From: Arachidicoccus soli | Lineage (GTDB): Bacteria > Bacteroidota > Bacteroidia > Chitinophagales > Chitinophagaceae | DNA length: 64,000 nucleotides | Assembly: GCF_003600625.1 (NCBI RefSeq) | Contig: NZ_CP032489.1 | Coordinates: forward strand, 2,542,001 to 2,606,000 | Direction: 5' to 3' | Part shown: positions 8,686 to 42,681 of the stretch, one piece after another | Layout of the letters: each line of letters begins with the position of its first letter | Position numbering within the stretch: the first letter of the stretch is position 1 | Made by a program: the position numbers and the translations under genes | Notes under the pieces: model-generated | Databases searched by the model: none | Told to the model about the DNA's origin: nothing | The model's input: the letters and a program-made list of their open reading frames with translations, nothing else

Positions 8686-9562
8686 TATTTAATTTATCAG
8701 CTTCACAAAATGTATTTAAGATACCTAATAATTCTTTTAAAATATTCTAATAAAATATTTTAAATTACAATCGATTGCACAAAAAAAAGAAAAAAATAAG
8801 CAAATTTTACCTAACCCGCATGAATACTATATTACGTATTGAAAATATAGTATTAAACCATTTTTCACGTCCCATCATTCAATATTTTAAAATACTACTT
8901 GAAATTCTAAGATTAAAACTAATTAATAATTATCAAATTGACAAATATTAAATCAATCCCAAAGAAATACTCGCTTACCTTCCTTACTTAGACTTGACAT
9001 TTCAGGTCCCAAAACAGTCCTTTAGGTTAAACAATCCGATTCCCTTTCTGAAATATCTTTTCAATTTCAAGAAGTATTGTTATTCAAAACGAACTCTACT
9101 ATCGTTCAGGTATATCTTTTCATCCTAAAATTCGATAAGCGATAATGTTTCGTAGATTGTATAAAAATAGGCCATTGCAAATGGCTTTAAATAATTAACC
9201 CATATCTCTTTTTAGGTGCTCATTTGCTCTTGAAAAGATCTCTAATAAATTAAAATGAGAACGATTCATATGCTCTTTTTATAAAAGGTTGCTAATGGTT
9301 TTGCTTTTACGGTTTCTATTGGAGGTAACGCATTGAATTGTTCCGAGAATCCAATGAGCATCCCCAACTAGGACTCCTGTTGCTTTCAGCTTTATTCCTA
9401 TCCCTAAACACCAAATGACTTATACAATAGTATCGTAAAGAATTACTGACTTTTGAGAAACGACTAAATAAAATATATTGAACCTTTCAAGGAATTATTC
9501 ATTATTTAACGGCTATCTTCATTATTGGATAAATAGATTCATTTAATACTGATTAACTCAGT
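8686..9562. other. 877-base intergenic region with one operator
   Basis: Very AT-rich and without a convincing gene. It holds the operator at 8766..8779 next to GH95. A small hairpin around 9171..9190 (GCCATT/AATGGC, followed on the minus strand by T-rich sequence) could end transcription of the upstream GH3 gene. On the minus strand around 9230..9365 a short open piece ending in ATFYKKSI is visible, but I recognise no family, so it is left uncalled. The rest shows no feature I can name. Confidence 0.5.
8766..8779. promoter_or_regulatory. LacI-type operator upstream of GH95 operon
   Basis: TACAATCGATTGCA, one base off the perfect palindrome TGCAATCGATTGCA found next to the LacI-family gene at 36035. 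It lies 80 bases upstream of the GH95 start. Flanking bases closely match those of the site at 30908..30921. Confidence 0.8.
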
Positions 9563-12364
9563 TTATTTTACAATAATCACCGATGAACCAGCAACACCAT
9601 TCACATTGACCGTAATCGTAACAGCACCTTTTCCAAGTAATTGTACGATACCCTTCGCATTAACTTTGGCAATGGCATTATTACTACTTTGATATTGCAT
9701 GTTTGCCTTTGCCAAATTCACAAAAGAGCCATCATTGTTCACTGCTTCTAAGATGTTATCTGCCTCAGCATGGGGTTCTTCTTTCTCCGTATTGATATCA
9801 CTTTTTATCCATTTGTTTTTCCCTTTTAAGTTAATTGTTTCTCCAATATGGTAGATGAGCTTTTCAGGTTGCACCGTTACATAATTAATCTTCGGGGTAA
9901 CTGTACCGTCTATATGTACATTTTGAGTGGCTGCAATATCACTGGAATTATAGCCAATTTGAAACTGATACTGTCCATTATAAACAATGCTTTTCAGGTC
10001 TTGTTCATTCCAATAGGAGAGATTATCGGCTTTGACCATAAGAGAGATATGTTGCGTCTGGCCCGGTTGAAGTACCTCCGTTTTTTGAAATCCTTCCAGT
10101 CTTTTAATGGGCAAATCTTTCCCCTTTATTTTTGGAGAGCTAACATAAAGCTGGGCTACTGTCGCCCCTGATACATTCCCTGTATTCTTGACATCAAAGC
10201 TGATGGTAACACTGTCATTTGCTGATATATTCTCAGATGAAATAGTCATATTAGAGAACTTAAATTGACTATAACTTAATCCAAAGCCGAAGGGATAACT
10301 GGGTTTACGTGTGAAATACATATATGTACGCCCTAATCCGTTTGTTTTTTGTGGTGTCAGCCAGTAGTTGGACATACTGGGCAGTTGAGTGGCATCTTTG
10401 TACCAGGTAAAGTTGAGATGTCCAGACGGGTTTTTCTTCCCTAACAATACATTCGCCAGGGCCGTACCCTGGCTTTCTCCATTATATCCGCTGAAAACAA
10501 TTGCTGGAAACAGATCCTGGACAAGGTTTATTTTTACAGGACCACAGGACTGGATGACCATTAGCATATTTGGGTTTCCAAGGGTTGTCGCCTGATAGAT
10601 TAGCGATTCGTAATTACCCGGCATGGCTAAATTTTGCCGGTCCTTTCCTTCGTGTGCGATGGATTCATCCGTCCCTACAAATACAATGACCAAATCTGCA
10701 CTTTTGATATCTGACTTTGTCTGCTTGCTAAAATAGGCTGCAGACTCGGCTTGTGTTGAACTATTTGTCTTGTCAAAGATTACCGAAGCACTAGGATTAG
10801 CTGCTTTTATTGCAGTGGTAATACCCTGAACGGCGCTAACTTTTAAGCTGGGGTTACCGGAATAACCACCTAAGGTTACCTTATCTGCCAGATCGCCCAG
10901 TATGACAATCTTTTTCAAGCTGGATGGAACAATGGGTAGCATTGGCTTATTTGTACCGGCAACGGTATCATTTTTTAAAAGTACCAAAGAATTTTCGGCT
11001 ACCTCTTCTGCTAATTTTTGGTGGGCTGGGCTCTGTATGACGGATTTAGTAATCTTAGTATAAGGCACATCCTCTGCGGGATCAAATTCACCGGTTCGCA
11101 TTCTTATTGTAAATACCCTTGTCAGTGCCCGGTCAATGACATCTTTACTGAGTATGCCTGCTTTGATGGCTTCTTCTATATTAGGGAAAGTATATTCTGC
11201 ACCTGTACAGTTAAGCGCAGTACCAGCTCTAACGGCATAAGCCTGGCCGCCTGCCGCACCTGAAACAGTCTGCCCTGTCTGCTTATTCACCCAGGTTGAC
11301 TTTTCAGCTTTTTGGTCAGTTTCCCAACCTGGAGCCGCCCATTTATGTCCTCTAGGGAATAAATTGTAAGTAGTACCAACAGCATCACAGTCAGAGGTAA
11401 TATAACCACTAAAGCCAAAAGTTCGCTGACCTAGTTCATTGACCATATAGGTGCTTGCTACGGCTGGCGTACCATTAATGGCATTATAAGAAGTCATCAA
11501 CCCTGCTACATGTGCTTTTTCTATAAGATACCGAAAAGTAGCCGTATAGTAATCCCGGATGGCTTCGTCATTTACATCGGAAGAAATTCCCTGACGATTA
11601 TTTTCGATATCGTTTAGTGCAAAATGTTTGGCAGTCGCCGCCACTTTCAAGTACTTATTGAAAGGCTGCCCGTCTATGGTTTGTCCCTGATAGCCATTGA
11701 CAAAGGCGGCTGCCATCTGTGAAGCCAGATAGGGATCTTCTCCATAAGCTTCATCGGTTCGTCCCCAGCGTGGGTCTCTGTCCATATTAATGGTGGGAGC
11801 CCAATAGGTCAGGTTGCCATAATCATCTCTGGATTCTCCAAGGTTATTCTGTGCTACACCAAATAATGATTTATCCAAAAAGCCTCTTGCTTCATCTGAT
11901 ATAGCTTCTGTTTCTTTATAGATAAGCCCCGGGTCCCAACTCATCGTGGAGGCAAAATTGGTCGGAAAACTCGTGGCTTGGGGAGAACCGTAGGCATCTT
12001 GTTTGGCAGTATTTCCATGGTGTAAGTTGCCAAACATCGCATTGATGCCATGCTGACCTTCACTCCAATAAATGTACTGATGTACCCCCAATCTGGGTAT
12101 GGCAGGTGAGTTATTGGTATGTAGCTGTAGTACTTCTTCTGCTAAAGTCATACGCGACACCAAATCGGCAGCCCGCTCTCTAAAAGAGTAATTCGTATTC
12201 AGATAAATGGGTTGAAGACTTTTATGTGACACGATAGTAGAAGATGGAGCTTCTTTTTGACCGTAAGTCTTCGCAATAAAGACTGTTAGTAAGAAAATGG
12301 ACATGGTGAGCAATTGAAAGATATGCCCATGGGCTACCAGATCACTCCTTTTATTTTGTTTCAT
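9563..12364 (-). CDS. GH3 beta-xylosidase/glucosidase with C-terminal Big_2 domain
   Basis: 933 aa. A hydrophobic export signal lies at about residues 16-35 (LTMSIFLLTVFIAKTYG). The GH3 N-terminal barrel has YWSEGQHGIN near the start and the nucleophile Asp in ITSDCDAVG. Then come the GH3 C-terminal sandwich (LVLLKND, GTDESIAHEGKDR), the YPFGFGLSY signature and an FnIII-like domain. Unusually, about 110 extra residues end in a bacterial Ig-like (Big_2) domain (AIAKVNAKGIVQLLGKGAVT), perhaps for surface display or carbohydrate contact. The family releases xylose (or glucose, arabinose) from the non-reducing end. The gene stands apart, 296 bases after the GH43 gene, and no LacI-type operator is seen upstream, so it may be read from the GH43 genes or its own promoter. 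Confidence 0.9.
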   Translation of the reverse strand: MKQNKRSDLVAHGHIFQLLTMSIFLLTVFIAKTYGQKEAPSSTIVSHKSLQPIYLNTNYSFRERAADLVSRMTLAEEVLQLHTNNSPAIPRLGVHQYIYWSEGQHGINAMFGNLHHGNTAKQDAYGSPQATSFPTNFASTMSWDPGLIYKETEAISDEARGFLDKSLFGVAQNNLGESRDDYGNLTYWAPTINMDRDPRWGRTDEAYGEDPYLASQMAAAFVNGYQGQTIDGQPFNKYLKVAATAKHFALNDIENNRQGISSDVNDEAIRDYYTATFRYLIEKAHVAGLMTSYNAINGTPAVASTYMVNELGQRTFGFSGYITSDCDAVGTTYNLFPRGHKWAAPGWETDQKAEKSTWVNKQTGQTVSGAAGGQAYAVRAGTALNCTGAEYTFPNIEEAIKAGILSKDVIDRALTRVFTIRMRTGEFDPAEDVPYTKITKSVIQSPAHQKLAEEVAENSLVLLKNDTVAGTNKPMLPIVPSSLKKIVILGDLADKVTLGGYSGNPSLKVSAVQGITTAIKAANPSASVIFDKTNSSTQAESAAYFSKQTKSDIKSADLVIVFVGTDESIAHEGKDRQNLAMPGNYESLIYQATTLGNPNMLMVIQSCGPVKINLVQDLFPAIVFSGYNGESQGTALANVLLGKKNPSGHLNFTWYKDATQLPSMSNYWLTPQKTNGLGRTYMYFTRKPSYPFGFGLSYSQFKFSNMTISSENISANDSVTISFDVKNTGNVSGATVAQLYVSSPKIKGKDLPIKRLEGFQKTEVLQPGQTQHISLMVKADNLSYWNEQDLKSIVYNGQYQFQIGYNSSDIAATQNVHIDGTVTPKINYVTVQPEKLIYHIGETINLKGKNKWIKSDINTEKEEPHAEADNILEAVNNDGSFVNLAKANMQYQSSNNAIAKVNAKGIVQLLGKGAVTITVNVNGVAGSSVIIVK

Positions 12365-12660
12365 TATTTAAACTTTTTTATATTAAATTTTAATTGGTCG
12401 GATGAATTCACCTGATTTAACATGGGGCAAGCAGTTTCCCTCTTATCATACTAATTATCGCTTTTCTTATAAAATAATTATTGATTATTTCTAAAGATAC
12501 GTCAGCGATACCAGACCTAAACTTCGAGGCAAAATCATTTATTCTTTGATTGAATATTATTCTCTATAAATGATAATAAATTATTCAGGATTATTTATCG
12601 CTTAAATAGAGCGGCGCCCCTTCACTCAAGCATAATAAATAGCAATATCCTCCGAGCTCT
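12365..12660. other. 296-base gap between GH43 and GH3 with possible promoter
   Basis: No gene or LacI-type operator is visible. On the minus strand a -7-like element TATCTTTA (12492..12499), with a TTTA 18 bases upstream, resembles the Bacteroidota promoter pattern TTTG / TAnnTTTG. It lies about 130 bases before the GH3 start. Weak evidence. Confidence 0.3.
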
Positions 12661-14016
12661 TTATTTTTTCTTAAATTTCCAATAATCAAAATTGAAAAGT
12701 TTTTCACCATGATCTCCTTTAAAAATAAAATATACATCATGCACACCTTTTGCATTTTTCACCTTACAAGATTTGGTAAACCAATTTTGCCATCCGCCGG
12801 TATTATTAACGAAGCAAGTTCCCAGCAGCACTCCATTAATGCTATCTAAACGTATTGCTATGCTGCCTCCATTTGTAGCGCTAGCTATGTTTGCATAAAA
12901 CCTTTTAATTCCCTTTTCAAAATTTACTCCTTTTACTTTTATAAAATCACCATTGTCAATATTAGTTACATATACTTGATCTCTATTCTTTTGCGTTTTA
13001 ACGCCTTCTTCCCAATTGATAGTCTCCGCTTCTACACGGGAAAAGGGGTTAAGCGTACCGATTTGCTTCACCCCTTTTTCTGACCACCATGGAAGTTCAG
13101 GTATAGTACCATCAGAATTATATTTAAACTCTTCAACGCAAACAGAACGTCTTTCGTGGTGCTTACTTGTCAAATTATAGTTAAGCTGATAATTAAACCC
13201 GAAAACATAGGACCTGTCTTTATAATCTATGATACCCGGGTGATTTCCAGATGATTTTGGGTTAGGCTTCATGATATATCCTTGATATCTCCAAGGGCCT
13301 GTGGGCTTATCGCTCATCGCATAACCGATACCTTCTGGACAACAAGTTGATGCATAAGCCATATAATAGTGTCCGTTATGTTTATAAGCCCATGGGCCTT
13401 CCTGATAATGATAAGGATCAGCCTGTCCCTTTATTTTCGCAAAAGAAGCATCTTCTACTATTTTCCCGGAATAAGATATCATATCCTGGTTCAGTTTCAC
13501 ATACCAAAGATTTGGATTGCCCCAATATAAATATGCCTGCCCATCATCATCTATAAAGACAGTAGGGTCAATATCGTCCCAAACATGGTTTGACTGAATC
13601 AACTTTTTCCCAATTGGATCTTTAAATGGGCCATAGGGGCTATTTGATACTAATACACCTATCCCGCTTCCTTGAATAGGGCAATACAAGTAAAATTTTC
13701 CATTTCGCGCAATACACTGAGGCGCCCATGCGCCATTATCTTGCCTACCCCAGCTAAAATCTTTTAGTGAAGCAACAGCGCCATGATCGGTCCAGTTAAC
13801 CATATCTGTGGAACTGTAACATCTCCAGTCTTTCATTCGAAAACCTCCCGAGCCAGGAGGGGCATTATCCTCGTCATGACTGGTATATAAAAATACCGTA
13901 TCATGATAAACCATTGGAGCAGGATCAGCAGTAAATATTGTTTGAATAATAGGGTTTTGTGCAAAACCATTCACCGTCAGACCTAAACTTATCATCAATA
14001 AAAGAAACTTATTCAT
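12661..14016 (-). CDS. GH43 arabinofuranosidase/xylosidase with C-terminal CBM6
   Basis: 451 aa with signal peptide (MNKFLLLMISLGLTVNGFAQ). The five-bladed GH43 propeller is complete: general-base Asp31 in FTADPAPMVY, Asp150 in DDIDPTVFIDDDG and catalytic-acid Glu206 in YQEGPWAY. From about residue 325 follows a CBM6 beta-sandwich (FSRVEAETINWEEGV ... DGDFIKV-type motif, here IDNGDFIKVKG). CBM6 usually binds xylan chains. The enzyme probably cleaves arabinose or xylose from arabinoxylan. It is a paralogue of the gene just upstream (14064..15824), separated by 47 bases, and lacks that protein's internal duplication. Substrate details need biochemical evidence. Confidence 0.9.
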   Translation of the reverse strand: MNKFLLLMISLGLTVNGFAQNPIIQTIFTADPAPMVYHDTVFLYTSHDEDNAPPGSGGFRMKDWRCYSSTDMVNWTDHGAVASLKDFSWGRQDNGAWAPQCIARNGKFYLYCPIQGSGIGVLVSNSPYGPFKDPIGKKLIQSNHVWDDIDPTVFIDDDGQAYLYWGNPNLWYVKLNQDMISYSGKIVEDASFAKIKGQADPYHYQEGPWAYKHNGHYYMAYASTCCPEGIGYAMSDKPTGPWRYQGYIMKPNPKSSGNHPGIIDYKDRSYVFGFNYQLNYNLTSKHHERRSVCVEEFKYNSDGTIPELPWWSEKGVKQIGTLNPFSRVEAETINWEEGVKTQKNRDQVYVTNIDNGDFIKVKGVNFEKGIKRFYANIASATNGGSIAIRLDSINGVLLGTCFVNNTGGWQNWFTKSCKVKNAKGVHDVYFIFKGDHGEKLFNFDYWKFKKK

Positions 14017-14063
14017 TATATCACTTAAACATTAAAATTATCTATAACCACAGATACTATTAC

Positions 14064-15824
14064 CTAGCCTTTACTGAATTTCCACCAATCAAAATTGAAC
14101 AGATGTCCCCCTGTTCCTTTAAAGACAAAGTAAACATCATGTACTCCCATAGTTTTAGCTACCTTAGATGTTACGGTTGCCCAATTTCCTAAGCCACCTG
14201 TATTTTTAACGGCACAAGATGTCAACAATTTTCCCTCCAAACTGTCTATCCGGATTTCGATTTTGCCATTATTTTTTAAAGAGGAAATTATAGCCTGAAA
14301 TTGCTTGGCGCCTTTTCCAAAGTCAACATCGCGCACTTTGATATAGTCGTTATTATCGATATCCGTAATATATACTCCGGTTTTATTGTCAGATGCAGAT
14401 TCCACTCCATTTTCCCATGCAATGGTTTCGGATTCTTGGCGTATATAGGGATTTAAATAAGCAACACTTTTAATAATACCGGCTTTCGTAGGTTTAATTC
14501 TTGGTATGGTTCCATCAGTATTATATTTAAATTGTTCAACGCATACTGACCTATCAAAACCACTTCCTCCCGGAAGATTTGCATTATGATAAAACAAGTA
14601 AGAATTCCCTTTATAATCTATCACAGCAGGATGATTGGTAAAAGCTCCTCCTTGTCTAATTGTCGGCATAATTGTATCTTGATAAACCCAAGGTCCTGTA
14701 GCGCTCTTACTGGTAGAATAGGCTAAGTGCTCAGGAACACCGCCAGCAGGATATACTAAATAATATTGTCTGTTACGCTTGTAAAACCAGGGCCCTTCTT
14801 CGTAAGTAGTAAACCTCTTTCCTGTGTTTTTTGCAGCTTCTTTAATTTGAGAAATAAACCAATTCTTTTTACTCAATGGGAGTTGCTGAATACCTTTACT
14901 TTCATCATAGGACTGCATATTTTCATTCAACCTTACATAATAAAGAGCTGAATTGCCCCAAGTAAGAAAAGCTTGATTGGAACTATCTATTACTACAGTT
15001 GGGTTTATATTGCCTCCTGCGCAATGCGCTGTAATTAACGGCCTTCCCAACATATCGACAAATGGACCAATTGCTTCCTTTCCTACTGCAACGCCAATAA
15101 CTTCTTTATTGGTTCTTTTATCAATAGCACTGACATACCAATAATATTTGTTATCCGTATTATTTTTAAAGCAGTGAGCGGATAAGCCATGAATACTTTT
15201 TGCCCAGCCAAAGGTATTTTTGGCATTTATGATTCTAAGCTTGAAGCCTTTATCTGTTAAAGGTACTTTTACAATACCCAGTTTTTGGTCATACGAAACC
15301 ATATCCTTATTAAGCTTTATATAATAAAGATTTGGATTGCCCCAATAAAGATAAGCTTGGCCATCATCATCAATAAACACGGTAGGATCAATATCTCCCC
15401 AATGCGTTGTTACCAAAAGCTTCCCCAGGGCATCCACAAACGGCCCGGTGGGTTTATCTGATATGGCAACACCTATCGCCATCCCCTGACCATTTGCTTG
15501 GTTCATCGGTACGTACCAATAAAATTTACCATTACGGTAAATACATTGCCCCGCCCACGCATCTTTGGATGCCCAACTGAAATTCTTAAGCGACAAGTCT
15601 GCACCTCTCTCTGTCCAGTTTACCATGTCTATAGTCGAATATACATGCCAATCTTTCATGCTAAACCAATTAGAGTTATCTTCATCATGGCCTGTATATA
15701 GGAACAAAGTATCCCGATAAACCATAACTGCCGGATCGGCTGTATGAATAGTTTGTATAATTGGATTTTGGCTCATCCCAATTAAGGGCAAAAGAAGAGC
15801 AAGCAAAACTACAAGACTTTTCAT
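14064..15824 (-). CDS. GH43 with duplicated propeller segment and CBM6
   Basis: 586 aa, signal peptide MKSLVVLLALLLPLIGMSQ. It has the same plan as its downstream neighbour (GH43 propeller plus CBM6 from about residue 460) but is 135 residues longer. The extra length is an internal repeat: residues about 91-190 (YRNGKFYWYVPMN, GPFVDALGKLLVTTHWGDIDPTVFI) recur at about 215-317 (NKYYWYVSAI, GPFVDMLGRPLITAHCAGGNINPTVVI). The catalytic set is intact in the primary copy: Asp30, Asp146 and Glu342/343 in TYEEGPWFY. In the second copy the Asp of DIDPT is Asn274 (NINPT). This suggests a tandem duplication followed by loss of the catalytic residue, possibly giving an extra blade or new binding surface. 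Arabinoxylan is the likely substrate. Confidence 0.88.
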   Translation of the reverse strand: MKSLVVLLALLLPLIGMSQNPIIQTIHTADPAVMVYRDTLFLYTGHDEDNSNWFSMKDWHVYSTIDMVNWTERGADLSLKNFSWASKDAWAGQCIYRNGKFYWYVPMNQANGQGMAIGVAISDKPTGPFVDALGKLLVTTHWGDIDPTVFIDDDGQAYLYWGNPNLYYIKLNKDMVSYDQKLGIVKVPLTDKGFKLRIINAKNTFGWAKSIHGLSAHCFKNNTDNKYYWYVSAIDKRTNKEVIGVAVGKEAIGPFVDMLGRPLITAHCAGGNINPTVVIDSSNQAFLTWGNSALYYVRLNENMQSYDESKGIQQLPLSKKNWFISQIKEAAKNTGKRFTTYEEGPWFYKRNRQYYLVYPAGGVPEHLAYSTSKSATGPWVYQDTIMPTIRQGGAFTNHPAVIDYKGNSYLFYHNANLPGGSGFDRSVCVEQFKYNTDGTIPRIKPTKAGIIKSVAYLNPYIRQESETIAWENGVESASDNKTGVYITDIDNNDYIKVRDVDFGKGAKQFQAIISSLKNNGKIEIRIDSLEGKLLTSCAVKNTGGLGNWATVTSKVAKTMGVHDVYFVFKGTGGHLFNFDWWKFSKG

Positions 15825-16029
15825 ATTATGGTTTAATGTAATTAATAATATTTATCTAATAGAAGGGTTTAATCAATTTAAATATTAGCTAATTAATCAA
15901 TAAAAAAGAAATTAAAATTCTTTCATAGAATAATATAAAATTATCTCTTGCCAATGCCTGTCTTATCAGATGCATATAGAAATCTACTGGTAATATTACC
16001 AATGCGTCAAGGGCAATTAAATAATTCCA

Positions 16030-17733
16030 TTATTTTCCCAGATTTTCCTTTATAGCTTCGGCTACATAAGCGTAAGCTAATTTTCTAACATATCCCTCTG
16101 TCCACAAACCGATCGGCTCACCGGCACGCCAACTTGAACTAGCCGGGCTATCAAGCGGACTCCAAATCGTAATGCCATAACGCTGCTTAGCAGGAATATT
16201 TTGAAAATATTGATCTATTACGAACTTGTACATCTTTGCTTGCGCCAAATATTGTGCACTTGTTGCATCAGCAGTTTGTGTATTATTGCCTAAACCAATG
16301 TCCAACTCAGAGATTCTTATAAGTTTCCCAGTAGCAGCTAACAGTTTAAACATTTGAATAATTTTACTTGAATCGGCATTTATATCAATATGCATTTGCG
16401 TGCCTATACCATCAACTTTTGCTCCATTAGTTTCGATATAATTTACAAACTGGATTAATCCCTTGCTCTTATCAAGATTGGACTCTAATCCATAATCATT
16501 TATAAACAGCTTATCGCCAGGATTTCCATACTTTCGTGCTAGGGTAAAAGCCTCAACTGCATAATCCTTTCCTAAATAATCCTGCCAAAAAAATTCGTCA
16601 CTTGTAAGTTTCTTTCCTATACCGCTTTTTAAATTATAAGGATTTCCGTCATCCATTGGTTCATTTACAACATCCCAGGCTTTTACGTAACCTTTACAAT
16701 CTGTAACAATTCCAGAAATCCATTTATCTAAGGCATTAGAAATAATTTGTTTCTTCTGCTCTGGCGTTTTATCAACTGTCGTAACAGCTCCTGTGGCACT
16801 ATACTTCATTAAAGAGATATTATCAATATAATAAGTAGTTGCGCCTTTACCAAGATTAAACGCAATGGCTCCACTGGTTGCCATATCTGATGTAACCGTA
16901 ATTTCTTTAGTATAGGTTGACCATGTACTCGCAGAAGGAACAGCACCAAAGAAATTCCAGTACTTATAAACCCCCGGAGTTATTTGTGCCTGCGTCGCAT
17001 AAGTTTCAGGAGCATCTGAACGCACATCCATCTTAAGCTGATATTTTTCCCCTACTTGTACTGCTGGAGAAAATTTCAAGAAAAACTGTACTTCCCAATC
17101 ATTGGTACGAACAGTTGGATTTGTTATTTTAAGGGCTCTTCCTGTTCCATATCCTCCTTCACCAACTGCTGAGAAAGTTGTAGTCACTCCTGACCCATTC
17201 ACCTGATAGTTTGCATTATTATCTGTTTCAAAATCGTTAGCTGTTACTAAAACCCAACCAGGTCCCGTAGAAGAAGTAGTATCGGGAGCGATTAGATTAT
17301 TCAAATAAGTCGCATTTTGATTGGCATGCCAACACAAGGTGTGGCCATATAAACTAATACCGGCTGATTTAGCAGCTTGCATTAATTCATTTACATTATC
17401 TAAATTTAAACTCCCATCAGCTTGAACGACCGCTCCGTGTTTCATAGCATAGCCTAATACAATTTCTTGAAAATTGCGATTGACCATTCTGTACATAACA
17501 CCTTTCTTAACGTAATCCGCCAAGGATACTGCTGCTCCTAATTTAAAATCAGGATATGCCGTTGAATCAATATATGATTTCAATGCCGGATAAGCATCAA
17601 TATTTTCTTGAGCAGCCACCTCATCTGGCTTATTGATGCTAAAATCAAGTGGTTTATATTTATAACAAGAGGCCAGCATGGTTATTACAAGAAGAACGGC
17701 CAAAATGAATAAGTTTTTATTATTATTTTTCAT
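16030..17733 (-). CDS. GH10 endo-1,4-beta-xylanase lipoprotein with inserted CBM (Xyn10 of the xus core)
   Basis: 567 aa lipoprotein (LLVITMLASC, lipid Cys at residue 23), so probably anchored on the cell surface. The GH10 barrel is interrupted: after GHTLCWHANQ (about residues 130-139) comes a CBM4/22-like beta-sandwich at about 160-312 (WVLVTANDFETDN, YYIDNISL), and the barrel resumes at about 322. Acid/base Glu358 sits in WDVVNEP and nucleophile Glu476 in RISELDIG. Xylanases with a CBM inserted at this point are the hallmark of the xus locus in Prevotella and Bacteroides. It would make the first cuts in xylan at the surface and feed oligosaccharides to XusB/XusD. It lies 32 bases downstream of xusE. 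Confidence 0.93.
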   Translation of the reverse strand: MKNNNKNLFILAVLLVITMLASCYKYKPLDFSINKPDEVAAQENIDAYPALKSYIDSTAYPDFKLGAAVSLADYVKKGVMYRMVNRNFQEIVLGYAMKHGAVVQADGSLNLDNVNELMQAAKSAGISLYGHTLCWHANQNATYLNNLIAPDTTSSTGPGWVLVTANDFETDNNANYQVNGSGVTTTFSAVGEGGYGTGRALKITNPTVRTNDWEVQFFLKFSPAVQVGEKYQLKMDVRSDAPETYATQAQITPGVYKYWNFFGAVPSASTWSTYTKEITVTSDMATSGAIAFNLGKGATTYYIDNISLMKYSATGAVTTVDKTPEQKKQIISNALDKWISGIVTDCKGYVKAWDVVNEPMDDGNPYNLKSGIGKKLTSDEFFWQDYLGKDYAVEAFTLARKYGNPGDKLFINDYGLESNLDKSKGLIQFVNYIETNGAKVDGIGTQMHIDINADSSKIIQMFKLLAATGKLIRISELDIGLGNNTQTADATSAQYLAQAKMYKFVIDQYFQNIPAKQRYGITIWSPLDSPASSSWRAGEPIGLWTEGYVRKLAYAYVAEAIKENLGK

Positions 17734-17765
17734 TGCTATTATAATTTTATGAAATAGGAATATGC

Positions 17766-18719: not shown

Positions 18720-18761
18720 TACTATTTAATTTAACAACACAAACTATTTTTATAAAAACTC

Positions 18762-20534: not shown

Positions 20535-20556
20535 ATATTTTATATTTTAACCTTCT

Positions 20557-23586: not shown

Positions 23587-23633
23587 TAGTACCAGGTTTA
23601 TATTAGAATGAATTAGATTAAAAGTCAAATATA

Positions 23634-25532: not shown

Positions 25533-25545
25533 GACTATCTCTTTT

Positions 25546-30821: not shown

Positions 30822-30907
30822 AAAAAGCCTGACTTCATTCCTACTCCATCTATTATTGCTCATAATTTAATATTTAAAACAGTTTTGGATATATTTTAAT
30901 AAATAAT

Positions 30908-30921
30908 TACAATCGATTGCA
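30908..30921. promoter_or_regulatory. LacI-type operator upstream of the GH10-sigma operon
   Basis: TACAATCGATTGCA, the same variant as at 8766. The flanks of the two sites agree over about 30 bases (AATTACAATCGATTGCACAA on the plus strand, then A-rich). It lies 86 bases upstream of the preferred GH10 start at 30821. Confidence 0.82.
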
Positions 30922-34388: not shown

Positions 34389-35876
34389 TTATTTGTTGAG
34401 ATGCATTTCTAATGCTGCTTTCCAGTGTACATAGGCCTGCTCATACTGGGCTTGCATTTCTCCGGGATATATGGTTTCTAATAATTCTAATTTTGCAAAT
34501 GCTTCATGAGTTTCTTTATAAATACCGGCGCCGATACCTGCACCTAAGGCTGCACCTACGCTGCCGTCCGTTTTATATAATTCCAAACTAAGTCCTGTAC
34601 TGTTGACAAAAGCCTGTGTAAAAGTTTTACTTAAAAACATATTGGCCTTTCCTGCTTTCACTTTAGTCGTTTTAATATCATTTTCCCGCATGATATCCAG
34701 TCCATAGCGAAAAGAGAAGGCGATACCTTCTTGTACTGCGCGGTAAATATGCCCTGCAGAATGTTTGTTTAAATCGATATTAGAAAAATGTGCACCGATT
34801 TGTTGATTACACAACATCCGTTCTGCCCCATTACCAAAGGGCAAAAATTGCAATCCATCTGCACCCGGGTTTACTTGCAAAGCCAAATCATTCATTTGTT
34901 GATAAGTCAGTTCGGGATTGGAAATATTTTTAATCCAGCGATTAGAGATCCCTGTTCCATTAATACATAATAAAACGCCCAGACGTTTCTTTTCATCCGT
35001 ATAATTTACATGAGCAAATGTGTTGATGCGGGATTTCTTATCGTATACCAATTTGTCCGTAACGGCATAAATGACGCCACTTGTACCTGCGGTGGTCGCC
35101 ACTTCACCTGGTTCCAAAACGCTTAATGACAATGCATTATTGGGCTGATCTCCTGCTTTATAAGTAACGGGTATACCCTCAGGAATATTTAATTCCCTGG
35201 CAATTGCTTTTGTCACCCTTCCATGTGTAGCGAATAATTCCTTGGTTTCAGGGAACAGGCTTTTGTCAAAATCAAAAAAGCCAAGAATATCTTCGGAGAT
35301 ATTTTCATTTTTAAAATCCCAAAATACACCTTCTGATAACATGGAAACAGTAGAAGTAATTGCTCCCGTCAGTCGCATTGCTATATAATCACCCGGCAAC
35401 ATGATCTTATCTATCTTCCCATAGATTTCCGGTTCGTTTTCTTTTACCCAAGCTAGCTTTGAAGCCGTAAAGTTGCCGGGGAAGTTTAATAATTGTGTCA
35501 GGCATTTCTCCTCCCCGATTGCGTGCAATGCTCTTTCGCCCTGCACAATGGCACGACTATCACACCAGATAATACTATCGCGTAACAGGCGTTGATCCTT
35601 ATCAACCAGGACCAATCCATGCATTTGGTATGTGATGCCGATAGCTTTAATATCTGAGGGATTATATTTGTTTAGGCTATTTGCTTTTTGCAAAGCCGCT
35701 TTCACATCTTGCCACCAAAGTTCCGGGTTCTGTTCTGCCCATCCCGCTTGCAAGCTTTTTATCTCCCGCTCTTTATCCTCCGGATAATTCACAGACAGGA
35801 TGCATCTTTGTGTTTCCGCATCGACAACTGCTATCTTTATGGAAGAAGTTCCAAGATCTATTCCTAATAAAAGCAT
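34389..35876 (-). CDS. xylB: Xylulokinase
   Basis: 495 aa FGGY-family kinase. The N-terminal phosphate motif is [18 protein letters not shown]. Typical downstream segments are [46 protein letters not shown] and the ATP-site region [11 protein letters not shown], with [12 protein letters not shown] near the end. It phosphorylates D-xylulose to xylulose 5-phosphate for the pentose phosphate pathway. It is the first gene of xylBAE. Its promoter region contains the perfect operator palindrome (35979..35992), shared with the divergent xylR gene, so induction by xylose or a metabolite is expected. Confidence 0.96.
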
Positions 35877-35951
35877 ATTTTTGATATTATATTTAGAGGT
35901 TTCAGAACAGCTTTTTCTACAATAAATTACTTGCAGAAAACAACCTGGATG

Positions 35952-35983
35952 CTAAAGTATGCTATTTTTTATATAATTTGCAA
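35952..35983 (-). promoter_or_regulatory. Probable xylB promoter overlapping the operator
   Basis: On the minus strand TTG (35981..35983, inside the right half of the operator), 21 bases, then TACTTTAG (35952..35959), one base off the Bacteroidota -7 pattern TAnnTTTG. A bound repressor would cover the -33 element. Confidence 0.45.
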
Positions 35984-35992
35984 TCGATTGCA
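35979..35992. promoter_or_regulatory. Perfect LacI-type operator between xylR and xylB
   Basis: TGCAATCGATTGCA is a perfect 14-base palindrome with CG at its centre, the form bound by many LacI-family proteins; with one more base on each side (35978..35993) it is still symmetric. It lies 42 bases before the xylR ATG and 102 bases before the xylB ATG, so it can control both divergent units. Confidence 0.88.
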
Positions 35993-36034
35993 ATTTTTTT
36001 TATAGAATTTAAAAAATATTTTTGTAAAACAACT

Positions 36035-37069
36035 ATGCAAAAAGAAACCACCATCTACGACATCGCAGATAAATTAGGCATCTCTGCCACAACAGTAAGC
36101 CGGGGCTTAAACAATAATCCGCGCATCAATAAGAACACAAGAGAGAAGATTCACAAAACAGCTGAGGAAATGGGTTATCAGCATAATACACTTGCCAGCA
36201 ATTTACGGAAGAGGCAAACGAAAACGATCGGTATATTACTCCATGAAGTAAATAGTAATTTTGTTACCTCTGTACTTGCCGGTATTGAAAAGGTGGTCAC
36301 GAAAGAACATTACGATATATTGATTACACACTCTGCTGAATCCGGAGAAAGAGAAATCGCGAATGCCACAAATCTATTGAATAAAAGAGTGGATGGCATC
36401 ATCGTTTCATTAGCCATGTCAACTAAAAACATTGATCATTTTACGCCTTATTTTGAACGAAAAATACCGATTGTATTCTTCGACCGCGTAATGAATGATG
36501 CAGATTGTACTAAAATTATCATTAATAATTTTAGCTGTGGCTACAATGCAACAAAGCATTTAATTGAACAGGGTTGCAAGAAAATTGCGCATATTACGGC
36601 GGACCTAACCCGCAACGTTTATAATGACCGATTTCTCGGCTATAAGAAAGCATTAAAAGATCATCAATTAACCTATAAGAAAGATTTGATAAAAATATGC
36701 AGTCTGGATAAAGCAGCAACGATTGAGGCGACAAGGGAATTACTCATACAGAAGCCGGATGCCTTCTTTGTCACAAACGATTTTGCAGCTGCTGTTTGTA
36801 TAGAAGTTATACATGAACATGGCCTCCGTGTTCCGGAAGACATTGCTGTCATAGGATTTAACAATGATACATTGGGAGACCTTATCACACCCAAACTTTC
36901 TACCGTGGATTATCCCGGTATTCTAATGGGTGAGGTTGCTGCAACAGAATTAATGAAGAAAATAAAACTTAAAAACAGCAATAAGAAATTTGCCGATCAA
37001 ACGATGACGATTCCTTCAGAATTAGTCATTAGAGAATCTTCTTTGAAGAGTCAAAAGAAAAAATCATGA
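36035..37069 (+). CDS. xylR: LacI-family transcriptional regulator of xylan/xylose genes
   Basis: 344 aa. The start is the ATG at 36035 (MQKETTIYDIADKLG), not the TTG at 35978, which lies inside the operator. The N-terminal LacI helix-turn-helix is at about residues 4-28 (IADKLGISATTVSRGLNNN), the hinge helix region follows (LASNLRKRQTKTIG), and the rest is a periplasmic-binding-like sensor domain (GIIVSLAMS, VIGFNNDTLGDLITP, LSTVDYPG). Located divergently from xylBAE and autoregulated through the shared operator. Genes downstream of identical sites encode xylanases and a xylosidase, so xylose or xylo-oligosaccharide is the likely effector. Repression relieved by ligand is usual in the family; activation is possible. 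Confidence 0.9.
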   Translation: MQKETTIYDIADKLGISATTVSRGLNNNPRINKNTREKIHKTAEEMGYQHNTLASNLRKRQTKTIGILLHEVNSNFVTSVLAGIEKVVTKEHYDILITHSAESGEREIANATNLLNKRVDGIIVSLAMSTKNIDHFTPYFERKIPIVFFDRVMNDADCTKIIINNFSCGYNATKHLIEQGCKKIAHITADLTRNVYNDRFLGYKKALKDHQLTYKKDLIKICSLDKAATIEATRELLIQKPDAFFVTNDFAAAVCIEVIHEHGLRVPEDIAVIGFNNDTLGDLITPKLSTVDYPGILMGEVAATELMKKIKLKNSNKKFADQTMTIPSELVIRESSLKSQKKKS

Positions 37070-37305: not shown

Positions 37306-39246
37306 TCATTGTACACTTCCCTCAAAGGGTGAAGCAGGTAACCCATCTTTGTTGCACAGATTTGCGCCTTCGGGGTTGTCGGCCCAGGCATATCTTACAT
37401 ATACGGGTTTTTCAATGGTATTGTTCCAAACAATCACTTGATTACCTTCTATTTTTGCCGCAGCCCAAATATATTTTTTATCTTTTCCAGCAATGGAAAA
37501 ATAAGCCAAAGGCTCTTTGTCATGGGTTGATAAACCGGCACCTACATGTGTAAAAGAAAGGACCAGTTTATCTCCTTTTCTTTCTATCGATTGAATCAAG
37601 GGCCCGGAATAGTTCAGAGAAGAGGCTCCATATACAAAATGTCGTGCCCATAAAGAAAGACGATAACCCACTTCTTGTTTCTTTACCGGATGGATATCGT
37701 TCCATTCACCCAAACCAATCGTTACTGCCATGCCTGTATGGGGAACAGATAATGTTTTTAACTGCTCTTGCCTTAAATTCGCCCAATCACTTTCAGATGG
37801 TTTTGAATTTGCCGGATTAAAGTTTGGCAATTGAACATAATAGAAGGGAAAATCTCCTATTTGCCAATGAGTACGCCAATCCTGAATAAGTGTACGCATT
37901 AAGGTATCGTAATTGGCCGGATAGCCTGTATTGGATTCTCCCTGATACCAGATCGCTCCTTTAATTTTATATTGGAGCAAGGGCGCAATCATCGCATTGT
38001 ATAAGCCGGAAGGCTTCCAGCGAATAAAAGTTTGGGATGGTAACTCAGGCATTATTGCGCCGATTTTATACTTCCATAAACCGGCTACACTCAGGGTATC
38101 CTTTCCGGCAATGATCTCATAGGGTTTATCGGGGACGAACCCGCCCTTGCCCGCGTTGCTTACAACACGAATAACAATTTCATTTGGCCCTTCTTTTAGT
38201 ATTCCGGCAGGAAAAGCATAACGTCTTCTCGGATATAGATAGGTGGTTGTGCCGACGAATTTTCCATTGATAAATACAGAATCAGCATCGACAATTCTAC
38301 CTAACCAAATCATGGCCGGTTTATTCATCATTTTTTGGGGAATATTGATTGTCTTTCTAAACCATACCACCCCATTAAAAGAGCTTTGTCCTTCATTTGC
38401 CCAATAACCGGGAATATCCATTTGATCCCAGTACTGATCATCCAAATTATTATTAATCCAATGCTCTTGCAATCCTTTGTCTTTTTTATTTAATGTGGTA
38501 TACCAATGACCACTAACACTATCGTCATGCTTTTGAATATGGGCTATCAGCGCATCACTTTTAAATTTTTCTGCTTCCTGATAATATTGCGGAAACTTTA
38601 CCAATGCCTTTTCACTTATCCAGGACTCAGCAGGCGAACCACCCAAAGAGGCATTGATAATCCCAATAGGAATTTTATATCTTTTATAAATTTCTTTCGC
38701 AAAGAAATAAGCCACGGCAGAGAAATCTAAGACATTTTCCGGATTAGCAGATTTCCATTCGCCTCCGGGCAGATCATCTAAAGGCTGCTTAAAATTATAA
38801 GTTTCCGGCACTTTAAATTGTCTGATAGCCTCATTTGTACTTTGCGCTATAATATCGCTATACACATATTTAAAGCTGCCGATGGTATGCTCCATATTGG
38901 ATTGCCCGCTACATAACCAAACATCTCCGAATAATAGATTTTTTACAGCAATAGATTCTTTTCCGCTAGTAAACAACATTTGATAAGGCCCGCCGGCTTT
39001 CTGAGCAGGAAGCATCATCTGCCAATCGCCTTCAGCATTTGTTTTAGCTTGGAATAGCTGATGATTAAAATGCAGCGTTACGGTCCTTTCCGGTGTAGCC
39101 CATCCCCAGATTTTAAGCTCCGTATTACGTTGTAAAACCATACCGTTGCTGATAAGCTTGGGTAGCTTTAACTGACCATAACCACTAATAGTTATTGAAA
39201 GTATTAACAACAAAGTAATTACATAAGGATGTTTTGAAAAGTTCAT
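37306..39246 (-). CDS. Sialate O-acetylesterase-type (SASA, CE20-like) acetylesterase
   Basis: 646 aa with signal peptide (LLLILSITISGYG, then QLKLPKLISNGMVLQR, the usual opening of the family). The SGNH hydrolase is split: block I GDVWLCSGQSNMEH carries the nucleophile Ser, block III-like WYQGESNTGYP follows later, and the Asp/His pair is in LGEWNDIHPVKKQEVG. Between them about 180 residues form a GH2-like jelly roll (GVVWFRKTINIP, DADSVFINGKFVG). This split plan is that of CE20 xylan acetylesterases known from Xanthomonas; classical members act on sialic acid. The context of xylanase and xylosidase favours removal of acetyl groups from xylo-oligosaccharides. It ends the GH3-GH10-esterase operon. 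Confidence 0.85.
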   Translation of the reverse strand: MNFSKHPYVITLLLILSITISGYGQLKLPKLISNGMVLQRNTELKIWGWATPERTVTLHFNHQLFQAKTNAEGDWQMMLPAQKAGGPYQMLFTSGKESIAVKNLLFGDVWLCSGQSNMEHTIGSFKYVYSDIIAQSTNEAIRQFKVPETYNFKQPLDDLPGGEWKSANPENVLDFSAVAYFFAKEIYKRYKIPIGIINASLGGSPAESWISEKALVKFPQYYQEAEKFKSDALIAHIQKHDDSVSGHWYTTLNKKDKGLQEHWINNNLDDQYWDQMDIPGYWANEGQSSFNGVVWFRKTINIPQKMMNKPAMIWLGRIVDADSVFINGKFVGTTTYLYPRRRYAFPAGILKEGPNEIVIRVVSNAGKGGFVPDKPYEIIAGKDTLSVAGLWKYKIGAIMPELPSQTFIRWKPSGLYNAMIAPLLQYKIKGAIWYQGESNTGYPANYDTLMRTLIQDWRTHWQIGDFPFYYVQLPNFNPANSKPSESDWANLRQEQLKTLSVPHTGMAVTIGLGEWNDIHPVKKQEVGYRLSLWARHFVYGASSLNYSGPLIQSIERKGDKLVLSFTHVGAGLSTHDKEPLAYFSIAGKDKKYIWAAAKIEGNQVIVWNNTIEKPVYVRYAWADNPEGANLCNKDGLPASPFEGSVQ

Positions 39247-39288
39247 TTTAAACTAAATTAAAATCTAAATAATATAAACGGAGGCCCC

Positions 39289-40386
39289 TTAAAATTTAAC
39301 CACATCCCAATAAGCCGGCTTACGTTGCAAAGCGGTATCAAATAATAAAGGATAATTCTTCCTACCCTCTACAGGGTAGTGATCCAGCCAGGTGTCCCTA
39401 TCAGACAGATTCCAGAAAGTGACACCATTGATATACTTCCTGTATTTTCTAAAAACACCAAAAACCATTTTATATGCATTTTCTTGTTTAGTCTTTAATG
39501 CATCCGTATAGGTATCTTGTTCACCTGTTCTTTTCGCTCGCTGATTTTTTTCCCATGGAAAAATGGAAATATCCAATTCCGTAAATTGAATTTTCAAGCC
39601 TAGAGAAGCAAAGAGCTGAATGGTTGACTCCAACTCTTCCTCTGAAGGTTCATAAACAGACCAATGCGCCTGAATGCCTATACCTGTAACGGGAATACCG
39701 CGAGCCAATAATCCTTTCAAAAGCCTATAGATTCTTTCTCTTTTTTCTGGCCGGATAACATTGTAATCATTATAAAATAATTGGGCCTTGGGGTCTGCTT
39801 CATGCGCATAACAAAAGGCACTGTCAATAAAGTCCTCACCACATATCTGGTACCATTTTGAATGGCGCAAAAATTGCGTACTATCGTCTGCAATCGCCTC
39901 ATTCACGACATCCCATGCATAGACTGCATGTTTATATCGATTAACCACCGTATAAATATGACTTTTCAATCTTTGGAGCAGGGTATCTTTAGTAACCGTC
40001 TTACCTTCCTTATCAACAAATAACCAATGGGGAGCTTGTTGATGCCAACAAAGATTATGTCCCCGAATCTTGAGATGATTGCTTACCGCAAAATTGACAA
40101 TAGAATCCGCATTTCGCCAATTATAGAAGTCTTGCAGCGGGTGAATGGGTTGCATCTTCATATCATTCTCAGGCGTGATACTATTAAACTCTTTTAAAAT
40201 AAGCGCGCCTTGTGCTCCGTTAATATTGTGAATATTCACTGCTACACCGATAGGGAAATAATTTTTATAATAATCTTTCAAACCCTTCTCATCACCTACC
40301 TTAGTGCTATGATGAAGGTTATTGCAACCTATAAAAAAAACTAGTCCGGATGCAATTAAGATGATTCTTTTAGGTAAATATTTCAT
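39289..40386 (-). CDS. GH10 endo-xylanase lipoprotein, second copy
   Basis: 365 aa, lipoprotein signal IASGLVFFIGC with lipid Cys21. It is a single GH10 barrel without CBM: ENDMKMQPIHP, RGHNLCWHQQAP, acid/base Glu163 in WDVVNEA, nucleophile Glu270 in QFTELDIS, and the ending YWDVVKF. It is a close paralogue of the protein at 29745..30821, with colinear motifs throughout and only a short insertion near residue 280. It starts 3 bases after the GH3 stop, so translation of the two is probably coupled. Both paralogues are under LacI-type operators, but in different operons. Confidence 0.92.
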   Translation of the reverse strand: MKYLPKRIILIASGLVFFIGCNNLHHSTKVGDEKGLKDYYKNYFPIGVAVNIHNINGAQGALILKEFNSITPENDMKMQPIHPLQDFYNWRNADSIVNFAVSNHLKIRGHNLCWHQQAPHWLFVDKEGKTVTKDTLLQRLKSHIYTVVNRYKHAVYAWDVVNEAIADDSTQFLRHSKWYQICGEDFIDSAFCYAHEADPKAQLFYNDYNVIRPEKRERIYRLLKGLLARGIPVTGIGIQAHWSVYEPSEEELESTIQLFASLGLKIQFTELDISIFPWEKNQRAKRTGEQDTYTDALKTKQENAYKMVFGVFRKYRKYINGVTFWNLSDRDTWLDHYPVEGRKNYPLLFDTALQRKPAYWDVVKF

Positions 40387-40389
40387 GGA

Positions 40390-42573
40390 CTAATTTTTTA
40401 TAAGCACACTTGTCATTACCATTTTTGAAGCGCCCAATTCCTGGCTTCTTTCTACCGGAGAGCTTCCGCCTATATATATTTTCAGATCACCTTTTGGGAT
40501 GACTGGCTCTCCAGCTGTATTATAAATCTGCATTTCTTCCGGTGTTACTGTAAAGTGTACCACCTTCGACTCATTAGGCTGTAGAGAGATTCGTTTAAAT
40601 CCTTTTAAGGAGTATAAAGGTGTTAAATAATCCTGCTGCGGAACTGATACATACATTTGTACCACTTCATCAGCAGCCATTTTTCCGGCATTACTTACAG
40701 TTGCTGACACTTCAAAAGATTGATTATTCTCTATAGATTTTTTATCCGCTTTAATATTTTTATAAACAAAATGAGTGTAAGAAAGTCCAAAGCCAAAAGG
40801 ATACATCGGTTTGTCTTCCATAAAACGATAAGTACGGCCTTTCATAGAATAGTCCGTAAAAGCAGGTAATTGATCCAAGGACATAGGGAAGGTAACCGGA
40901 AGTTTACCTGAAGGAGAGGCTTTTCCAAAGATTACATTAGCAACGGCGTTACCTCCCTCCTCTCCGGGATACCATACCAGCAATACCGCATCAGATAGTG
41001 TATGTACTTCTTTCAGATTCATAGGGCTTCCCCCGGTAATGATGGTAACAATTTTTCCTTTGTAACCATCTCTCAGTTTCTTTAAAAAATTAATTTGATT
41101 TTTGGGTAGATTATAATCCAATCTATCACCGTATGTTGAAGAAGCCAATGCATCACCTTCTTCACCTTCGATGGTCCCATCGATGCCTAAAACTGCAAAA
41201 ATCACATCACATTCTTTAGCATCTCCTGTGGTCCAATCTTCTGGATTACTATTGGCTGCATTCAACATTATACCTTGTTTAAACTGCAACTGACTTCCTT
41301 TGGATATTTGTCCTGCAATGCCTTCGAGAATAGTTACCATTTTATTATTTACACCATAATAGTTCCCTATTAATGAATTGATGGTAGCGGCATTAGGTCC
41401 TGTTATAAAATATTTTGGCAAGTCATTTTTCAAGGGCAATACGCCATCATTCTTTAATAAAACGATCGACTCTTCGGCTGCTTTAAGCGCCAGTTGCCGA
41501 TGTGCTTCGCTGTTGATTACATCTGGGCCAATTTTATCATAAGGATCTGTCCCAATTGGGTTAAATAAACCCAATTTAATTCTCGTACGTGTAAGACTCG
41601 CCAAAGCACTATCTATTTTGGCTTCTGTCGTCAATCCTTGTTTTACGGCATTATCCAACGCCGTAAAAGTATTACCGCAATTCAGGTCGAGACCATTATT
41701 GATGGCCAATGCAGCCGCCGCTTCCGGTGTTTCTACCGTTTTATGAAACTGAAAGATATCGGCGACGGCATCGCAGTCAGAAACTATATGCCCTTTAAAG
41801 CCCCAGTCCTGCCTTAACACAGTGTCTAACAAATAGCCATTACCACTACAGGGAATTCCGTTTAGGGCGTTATAGGCAGCCATTACAGATTCTACGCCTG
41901 CTTTCACTAAGGCCTTGAATGCCGGGAAATAAGTTTCATGGAGATCCAAATTGGTAGCAATGGCATTAAAGGCATGCCTATCCCCTTCGGGTCCACTATA
42001 AACAGCAAAGTGCTTGGCACATGCAGCTGCTTTTAAATAATCAGGACGGTCACCTTGAAGCCCATGCACAAATGCTACTCCCATCTGGGAAGTCAGAAAA
42101 GGGTCTTCTCCATAGGTTTCCTGACCACGCCCCCAACGGGGATCTCTAAATATATTAATATTCGGCGTCCAGAATGATAAGCCGCCATAATGCAATTCAT
42201 AACCGCGTTTACGATCTATATTAAAATTAGCCCTTGCCTCATCTGAAATAGCAGAAGCAACTTGTTTAAGCAGCGCAGGGTCAAAAGTCGCTGCCTCGCC
42301 GATTGCCTGTGGAAATACTGTTACCACACCGGATCGTCCTACACCATGCAATGCTTCATTCCACCAATTATAGGCGGGCACACCCAGTCTTGGAATAGCT
42401 GGCGCAGCATTCATTAATTGATTGATCTTTTCGTCTAAAGTCAATTTAGAGATAAAATCATTGACTCTTGCATTCAATGATTTTGTAGGATCTTTAAAAA
42501 CTTGTGCCTTTCCTCGAGGAGCGATCGTAAGCAACAAACAGATAGAAAGAAAATAGCTGAAATATTTTTTCAT
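40390..42573 (-). CDS. GH3 beta-xylosidase
   Basis: 727 aa from the ATG at 42573, which begins a signal peptide (MKKYFSYFLSICLLLTIAPRGKAQ). A frame start at 42621 would lie only about 20 bases behind the predicted -7 element and add an unlikely 16 residues. GH3 landmarks are YNWWNEALHGVG, KHFAVYSGPE, nucleophile Asp in IVSDCDAVADIF, SIVLLKNDGVLPL, GIDGTIEGEEGD and YPFGFGLSYTHF, then an FnIII-like C-terminus. The WNEALHGVG form is typical of bacterial xylosidase-type GH3 enzymes. It releases xylose from short oligosaccharides, probably in the periplasm. It heads the GH3-GH10-esterase operon, with the operator 94 bases upstream. Confidence 0.92.
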   Translation of the reverse strand: MKKYFSYFLSICLLLTIAPRGKAQVFKDPTKSLNARVNDFISKLTLDEKINQLMNAAPAIPRLGVPAYNWWNEALHGVGRSGVVTVFPQAIGEAATFDPALLKQVASAISDEARANFNIDRKRGYELHYGGLSFWTPNINIFRDPRWGRGQETYGEDPFLTSQMGVAFVHGLQGDRPDYLKAAACAKHFAVYSGPEGDRHAFNAIATNLDLHETYFPAFKALVKAGVESVMAAYNALNGIPCSGNGYLLDTVLRQDWGFKGHIVSDCDAVADIFQFHKTVETPEAAAALAINNGLDLNCGNTFTALDNAVKQGLTTEAKIDSALASLTRTRIKLGLFNPIGTDPYDKIGPDVINSEAHRQLALKAAEESIVLLKNDGVLPLKNDLPKYFITGPNAATINSLIGNYYGVNNKMVTILEGIAGQISKGSQLQFKQGIMLNAANSNPEDWTTGDAKECDVIFAVLGIDGTIEGEEGDALASSTYGDRLDYNLPKNQINFLKKLRDGYKGKIVTIITGGSPMNLKEVHTLSDAVLLVWYPGEEGGNAVANVIFGKASPSGKLPVTFPMSLDQLPAFTDYSMKGRTYRFMEDKPMYPFGFGLSYTHFVYKNIKADKKSIENNQSFEVSATVSNAGKMAADEVVQMYVSVPQQDYLTPLYSLKGFKRISLQPNESKVVHFTVTPEEMQIYNTAGEPVIPKGDLKIYIGGSSPVERSQELGASKMVMTSVLIKN

Positions 42574-42642
42574 CCTGGATGATTTATTGTTTAGAGATAA
42601 TATAAATAAATTGAAGAACACCTAACAAACAGTAATTCTTCC

Positions 42643-42672
42643 GCAATATAGGACATTTTTATAAATTTGCAA
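42643..42672 (-). promoter_or_regulatory. Probable promoter of the GH3-GH10-esterase operon
   Basis: On the minus strand TTG (42670..42672, inside the operator), 19 bases, then TATATTGC (42643..42650), one base off TAnnTTTG. The layout equals that of the xylB promoter. Confidence 0.5.
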
Positions 42673-42681
42673 TCGATTGCA
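42668..42681. promoter_or_regulatory. Perfect LacI-type operator upstream of GH3 operon
   Basis: TGCAATCGATTGCA, identical to the site next to xylR and also symmetric when extended by one base on each side (42667..42682). It overlaps the -33 part of the predicted promoter. Confidence 0.87.

What the first reader, a model, noticed from the sequence alone, without database searches (positions are those of the whole stretch)
8766..42681. A four-site LacI-type regulon spanning the xylan locus
Seen directly: TGCAATCGATTGCA (perfect at 35979..35992 and 42668..42681) and TACAATCGATTGCA (8766..8779, 30908..30921) occur only in intergenic positions, 80-102 bases upstream of four minus-strand operons and 42 bases before the LacI-family gene itself. 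Known: LacI-family operators are CG-centred palindromes of this kind. Inference: one local regulator controls xylose catabolism (xylBAE), two xylanase operons and the GH95-GH8-esterase operon. I know of no description of this operator for a Bacteroidota xylan locus, where hybrid two-component systems are usual.
Basis: partly seen in the sequence, partly recalled or inferred. Interest (0 to 1): 0.8.

Follow-up and report, generated by a model that had tools for sequence, protein, structure and literature searches.

The report
LacI repressor regulon of xylan locus
A soil bacterium appears to control its whole xylan-eating gene cluster with one sugar-sensing repressor that recognises a 14-letter palindrome found six times in the genome, each time in front of genes of that cluster; the kind of switch is familiar, but we found no description of its use across a Bacteroidota xylan locus.

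Summary
Confirmed and extended. The four palindromes are at the stated places. A one-mismatch copy precedes a GH127 gene. Neither refuting result appeared: the palindrome is in 6 of 6 Arachidicoccus genomes, before xylB in six and xylR in five, and TRCAAYCGATTGYA (up to 1 mismatch) lies within 400 nt of the start codon of 62 of 80 related lacI genes; permuted palindromes do not recur. Geometry fits repression: a Bacteroidota -7 box starts 15-25 nt after the operator in 20 of 35 oriented sites (4.9 in shuffles), and in 36 of the 62 relatives the operator ends 1-13 nt before the lacI start codon. Best reading: an autoregulated LacI/GalR repressor induced by xylose or a xylan-derived sugar. Binding, inducer and sign are untested. 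New member of a known kind; an ECF sigma gene inside the regulon and tandem lacI pairs are unexplained extras.

The parts
8766..8779 (.). operator TACAATCGATTGCA before the GH95-GH8-esterase operon
30908..30921 (.). operator TACAATCGATTGCA before the GH10 - ECF sigma genes
35979..35992 (.). operator TGCAATCGATTGCA between divergent xylB and xylR
   Evidence: aligned place conserved in G001, G003, G004 and, as TGTAATCGATTTCA, in four Niabella
42668..42681 (.). operator TGCAATCGATTGCA before the GH3-GH10-esterase operon
36035..37069 (+). xylR, LacI/GalR-family regulator (344 aa)
   Evidence: Pfam LacI HTH 6.5e-14 and Peripla_BP_3 1.4e-31; passes no NCBIfam cut-off
36017..36024 (+). predicted -7 box TATTTTTG of xylR, 24 nt after the operator
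35952..35959 (-). predicted -7 box TACTTTAG of xylB, 19 nt after the operator; the operator's ATTG lies 21 nt before it
34389..35876 (-). xylB, FGGY kinase, xylulokinase-like
   Evidence: TIGR01312 313.8 bits, below its cut-off of 380
33013..34341 (-). xylA, xylose isomerase
   Evidence: TIGR02630 665.6 bits, over cut-off
31325..32983 (-). xylE, D-xylose MFS transporter
   Evidence: NF007484 701.9 bits, over cut-off
29745..30863 (-). GH10 xylanase
29122..29709 (-). ECF sigma factor gene, 35 nt after the GH10 gene
   Evidence: Pfam sigma-70 regions 2 and 4; TIGR02985 over cut-off
9563..28731 (-). two susC-susD pairs, DUF5627, GH10, two GH43-CBM6, GH3; no operator of their own, 390 nt after the sigma gene
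607..8685 (-). GH95, GH8, double esterase, esterase and a further ORF downstream of operator 8766
37306..42573 (-). GH3, GH10 and SASA-esterase genes downstream of operator 42668

Best explanation
The palindrome is the operator of the LacI/GalR-family protein encoded at 36035-37069 (XylR). A XylR dimer binds it over the -33 region of target promoters, and near the promoter or start codon of its own gene, and blocks transcription. Xylose, or another sugar released from xylan, binds the sugar-binding domain and releases the repressor, turning on xylBAE, two xylanase operons, the GH95-GH8-esterase operon, the glucuronoxylan susCD-GH115 operon and probably GH127 together. Shown: the sites, confinement of exact copies to one locus, conservation beside xylR and xylan genes, the spacing to predicted promoters. 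Inferred: binding by XylR, repression rather than activation, the inducer.
For: 6 exact sites in the genome, all in the locus; LacI domains; of 15 LacI HTH genes only this one lies beside an exact site; 6 of 6 Arachidicoccus genomes with the motif, before xylB in 6 and a xylR in 5; 62 of 80 related lacI genes with a site at up to 1 mismatch within 400 nt; 81 hits against at most 5 for 179 other permuted palindromes; Niabella keeps a diverged palindrome at the aligned place; -7 boxes at fixed spacing in 20 of 35 oriented sites, and operators 1-13 nt from the lacI start codon in 36 of 62.
Against: No binding or expression data. 7 of 80 related loci have no site at up to 1 mismatch at all. Not every target keeps it (GH3 in G002, xylR in G005). 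Another LacI gene has the same palindrome in front. At the window's GH10, GH95 and GH3 promoters no -7 box with 5 of 6 letters was found at the expected spacing.
Confidence: 0.8

Rival explanations
1. XylR reads the same operator but acts as an activator, or as a dual regulator, rather than as a simple repressor.
For: Sites upstream of the -7 box could also serve an activator; activation by FruR/Cra is described for the LacI family (PMC4052901, passages). The distal susC sites lie about 200 nt upstream of the gene.
Against: In 36 of 62 relatives the operator ends 1-13 nt before the lacI start codon, and at target promoters it overlaps the -33 place; both fit blocking better.
Confidence: 0.12
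2. The sites are read mainly by another LacI protein, such as the 67% paralogue at 1424494-1425510, with the neighbouring xylR playing a minor part.
For: The paralogue's HTH is close to that of XylR; in G001, G003 and G004 a different LacI gene also carries the palindrome.
Against: No site at up to 1 mismatch in the 16 kb and 8 kb fetched around the paralogue; the site stays beside xylR across genera.
Confidence: 0.06
3. The palindromes are a chance repeat or a structural element without a regulator.
For: Only the weak signal with 2 mismatches allowed.
Against: Genome-wide confinement, permuted-palindrome controls and conservation in other genera.
Confidence: 0.01

Closest known systems
LacI-family sugar regulons reconstructed by comparative genomics (Ravcheev et al. 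2014, PMC4052901; passages seen)
   Same: Even, CG-centred palindrome (1251 of 1303 motifs even, 1173 CG-centred in that paper), sites mostly 140-30 bp upstream of genes, local autoregulated sugar regulator.
   Different: The term XylR does not occur in its text and Bacteroides is its only Bacteroidota group; no regulon for xylan there. Here the sites extend over susCD transport operons.
Bacteroides XylR (BT0791), NrtR family, xylose operon xylRBAE (PMC3878776; passages seen)
   Same: Local regulator of the xylose genes in a Bacteroidota.
   Different: Different protein family (NrtR, not LacI) and a regulon described as xylose utilisation.
Gramella flava xylan PULs with an annotated lacI gene (PMC5306329; section 13 read)
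   Same: lacI, xylA, xylB, xylE and susCD together in a Bacteroidota xylan locus.
   Different: Annotation only; the section gives no operator or regulon.
Hybrid two-component regulation of xylan loci (review PMC10766802; passages seen)
   Same: Same task: switch on xylan genes when xylan sugars are present.
   Different: No Y_Y_Y sensor domain in 2502001-2606000; a cytoplasmic LacI protein would sense the sugar inside the cell (inference).

Membership tests
LacI/GalR-family local sugar regulator | LacI HTH plus periplasmic-binding-protein-like domain | tested here: met
   PF00356 and PF13377 over cut-off
LacI/GalR-family local sugar regulator | even, CG-centred palindromic operator upstream of targets | tested here: met
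LacI/GalR-family local sugar regulator | site in front of its own gene, kept in relatives | tested here: met
   5 of 6 Arachidicoccus; 62 of 80 named loci
LacI/GalR-family local sugar regulator | DNA binding released by a sugar | not testable with these tools
   needs EMSA or footprinting with sugars
CcpA-type global catabolite regulator | meets the CcpA model and has many dispersed sites | tested here: not met
   TIGR01481 186.3 bits against a cut-off of 442; exact sites confined to one locus
NrtR-type XylR of Bacteroides | NrtR (Nudix-type) domain architecture | tested here: not met
   only LacI and sugar-binding families plus a weak HTH_10 match
HTCS-controlled PUL | hybrid sensor with Y_Y_Y domain in the locus | tested here: not met
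   7 matches in the genome, none in 2502001-2606000
ECF sigma / anti-sigma (FecI-FecR type) control | anti-sigma gene beside the ECF sigma gene | tested here: not met
   neighbours are GH10 and a SusC gene; SusC Pfam hits show no signalling domain

The most novel reading that the evidence does not exclude
A LacI-to-sigma cascade: XylR represses an ECF sigma gene that has no anti-sigma gene beside it, so de-repression supplies a sigma factor that transcribes the adjoining two-fold susCD xylan operon, which has no operator of its own. In support, a relative of the sigma gene stands behind the same type of operator in a different setting each time: GH10 (this genome), xylBAE (G001), a susCD-like operon (G003), and directly behind a one-mismatch site (G020). 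No target promoter of this sigma was found, and plain read-through from the GH10 promoter is not excluded.
Probability: 0.3. Interest if true: 0.6.

Novelty: new member of a known kind. Interest (0 to 1): 0.45.

Why it matters
Xylan loci of Bacteroidota are usually discussed in terms of hybrid two-component systems that sense oligosaccharides outside the cytoplasm. A conserved LacI operator that ties xylose catabolism, xylanases and susCD transport together would mean that many Chitinophagaceae set xylan use by the sugar inside the cell, and it gives a 14-base tag by which the regulon can be read from any genome of the group.

Tried and rejected
Chance repeat: rejected by genome-wide counts and permuted palindromes. 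Sites with 2 mismatches as further members: not diagnostic (115 hits against 20 for the reversed pattern, list cut by the tool). One-mismatch copies outside the locus (4 of 5): one lies 95 nt before a SusC-like ORF (L009), one 309 nt before an ORF that looks like an esterase (L011; from the look of the letters, no family search), one beside a transposase-like ORF (L012; same caveat); the surroundings of L010 were not examined. They may be members or sites of paralogues; left open. An operator near the 67% paralogue: none at up to 1 mismatch in L085 and L197. Exact hits in five non-Arachidicoccus relatives, one each: four surroundings were looked at: one is 2.1 kb from a GH115 gene (L101), one inside a long ORF (L104), two (L102, L103) beside ORFs without a match to the xylan reference proteins; the fifth (G047) was not looked at. 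The reversed pattern had one genome with a hit among the 59 relatives (G038). A sigma target promoter: the 390-nt gap before SusC was read by eye, no motif claimed. Structure prediction was not run, as it would not decide between the explanations.

Full report
What is there. The window is 2542001-2606000 of a single contig of 4,099,663 bases. So the host is taken to be an Arachidicoccus (Chitinophagaceae). In the whole genome TRCAATCGATTGYA occurs six times and its reversed control never; Markov-1 expectation is 0.11. All six lie in 2536264-2584681. A one-mismatch copy at 2522339 precedes a GH127 gene.

The regulator. The ORF at 36035-37069 has the LacI HTH and sugar-binding domains. It passes no NCBIfam cut-off, so its sugar cannot be read from a family name. 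By sequence the best-scoring solved relatives are CcpA proteins. The genome has 15 LacI HTH genes; only this one lies beside one of the six exact sites.

Genus conservation. All 6 Arachidicoccus genomes have the palindrome; of 53 other relatives searched, 5 have it, once each, and one has the reversed control. Maps of the fetched stretches show it before xylB in 6 of 6 and before a xylR in 5 of 6 (not G005). It precedes the susC of the GH115 operon in the 5 genomes where that gene was fetched (in G003 only as one-mismatch copies), although gene order differs. It precedes GH3 in G000, G003 and G004, and esterase genes in G001 and G003. Not every target is kept: GH3 of G002 has no site in front.

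Family conservation. The named-genome scan with the XylR alignment kept the best 80 of 516 related stretches. TRCAAYCGATTGYA at up to one mismatch lies within 400 nt of the lacI start codon in 62 of 80; counted from the match start, 39 of 80 have an exact one and 60 of 80 one at up to one mismatch. In the 1,487,267 bases there are 79 exact and 56 one-mismatch sites against 0 and 0 in the reversed sequences. Of 180 palindromes with permuted half-sites TGCAATCGATTGCA has 81 hits at up to one mismatch and the next has 5. A xylA or xylB gene lies in the held flanks of 45 of 80. Of the 18 without a near site, 4 are Niabella, which group with the Arachidicoccus XylR proteins in the tree (96/100) and have TGTAATCGATTTCA at the aligned place; 6 have sites further upstream, 1 only a distant one-mismatch copy, 7 none. 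In a family sample 42 of 147 genomes have TGCAAYCGATTGCA and no row shows the reversed control.

Promoters. The Bacteroides housekeeping promoter has TAnnTTTG at -7 and TTTG near -33; in Flavobacterium johnsoniae the -7 was confirmed but the -33 could not be identified (PMC7366714, one passage). A box with TA and at least 5 of 6 fixed letters starts 15-25 nt after the operator in 20 of 35 oriented sites (shuffles 4.9, 0 of 500 reach it), a perfect box in 8 (shuffles 0.4); the three other offset bands tested give 6, 1 and 1 of 35. Orthologous promoters and both directions of the xylB-xylR site are counted, so these are not independent events. At xylB and the distal susC site the operator's own ATTG lies 21 nt before the box, at GH127 19 nt, that is about the -33 place; at xylR it does not. 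The window's GH10, GH95 and GH3 promoters show only 3-4 of 6 letters. In 36 of the 62 relatives with a near site the operator ends 1-13 nt before the lacI start codon. Both placements fit blocking rather than activation.

Beyond one repressor. (1) An ECF sigma gene (29122-29709) follows the GH10 gene under operator 30908, with no anti-sigma gene beside it. Among 11 genomes searched relatives stand in the xylBAE operon of G001, in a SusC/SusD-like operon of G003 behind TGCAATCGGTTGCA, and 35 nt behind a one-mismatch site in G020. Against: the best matches in G002, G004 and G005 (37-42%) are not near the xylan locus, the 3.5 kb around that of G007 has no site, and those of G009, G013 and G031 were not examined. 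(2) In 23 of the 80 loci two lacI genes stand in tandem, 35-86 nt apart. (3) In G001, G003 and G004 a second LacI gene (42-43% identical to XylR), beside rhamnosidase and SusC/SusD-like genes, has the same palindrome in front. (4) CGAACGTTTGTAA occurs exactly twice in the genome, 18 and 142 nt from two of the operators; similar ACAAACGT elements start 43 nt from the GH3 operator in G003 and G004.

Known or new. Ten paper searches in a library that lacks most subscription journals did not turn up this operator; the 12- and 14-base strings matched two papers on other subjects by their listing. A lacI gene beside xylan and xylose genes is annotated in Gramella flava (PMC5306329, section 13). Bacteroides uses an NrtR-type XylR (PMC3878776, passages). 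A CG-centred even palindrome is the rule for LacI proteins (PMC4052901, passages). The finding is a well-supported new member of a known kind, with the sigma gene and the tandem lacI genes as the parts worth a specialist's time.

Noticed in passing
window 29122-29709; L086:10550-11116; L200:6744-7295; L187:1456-2040: ECF sigma gene without a neighbouring anti-sigma gene, behind a XylR-type operator in four genomes but in different operons.
   Followed up: partly
L113, L117, L126 and 20 further loci of L105-L184: Two lacI genes in tandem (35-86 nt apart) next to xylan genes, many with a palindrome before each; they may sense two sugars or form mixed dimers.
   Followed up: partly
L089:6142, L096:6265, L099:6718: A second LacI gene next to a rhamnosidase gene in three Arachidicoccus species has the same palindrome 48-63 nt before it, so two regulators may share one operator.
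   Followed up: partly
window 31064-31076; L005:14296-14308: CGAACGTTTGTAA occurs exactly twice in the genome, both times upstream of a regulon operator; possible site of another regulator.
   Followed up: partly
L085:6485-7510 (G000 1424494-1425510): A 67% identical LacI paralogue in a GH3-GH39-GH5-SusCD locus, sister to XylR in the tree, with no such operator nearby.
   Followed up: partly
L009:1501-1514; L011:1501-1514: One-mismatch copies outside the locus, 95 nt before a SusC-like ORF and 309 nt before an esterase-looking ORF.
   Followed up: partly
L005:18079-19212: IS605 OrfB-type transposase gene between the GH51 gene and the window start, inside the xylan region.
   Followed up: no
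L086:11306-12963: The xylE gene of G001 is read as two overlapping ORFs, as by a frameshift.
   Followed up: no
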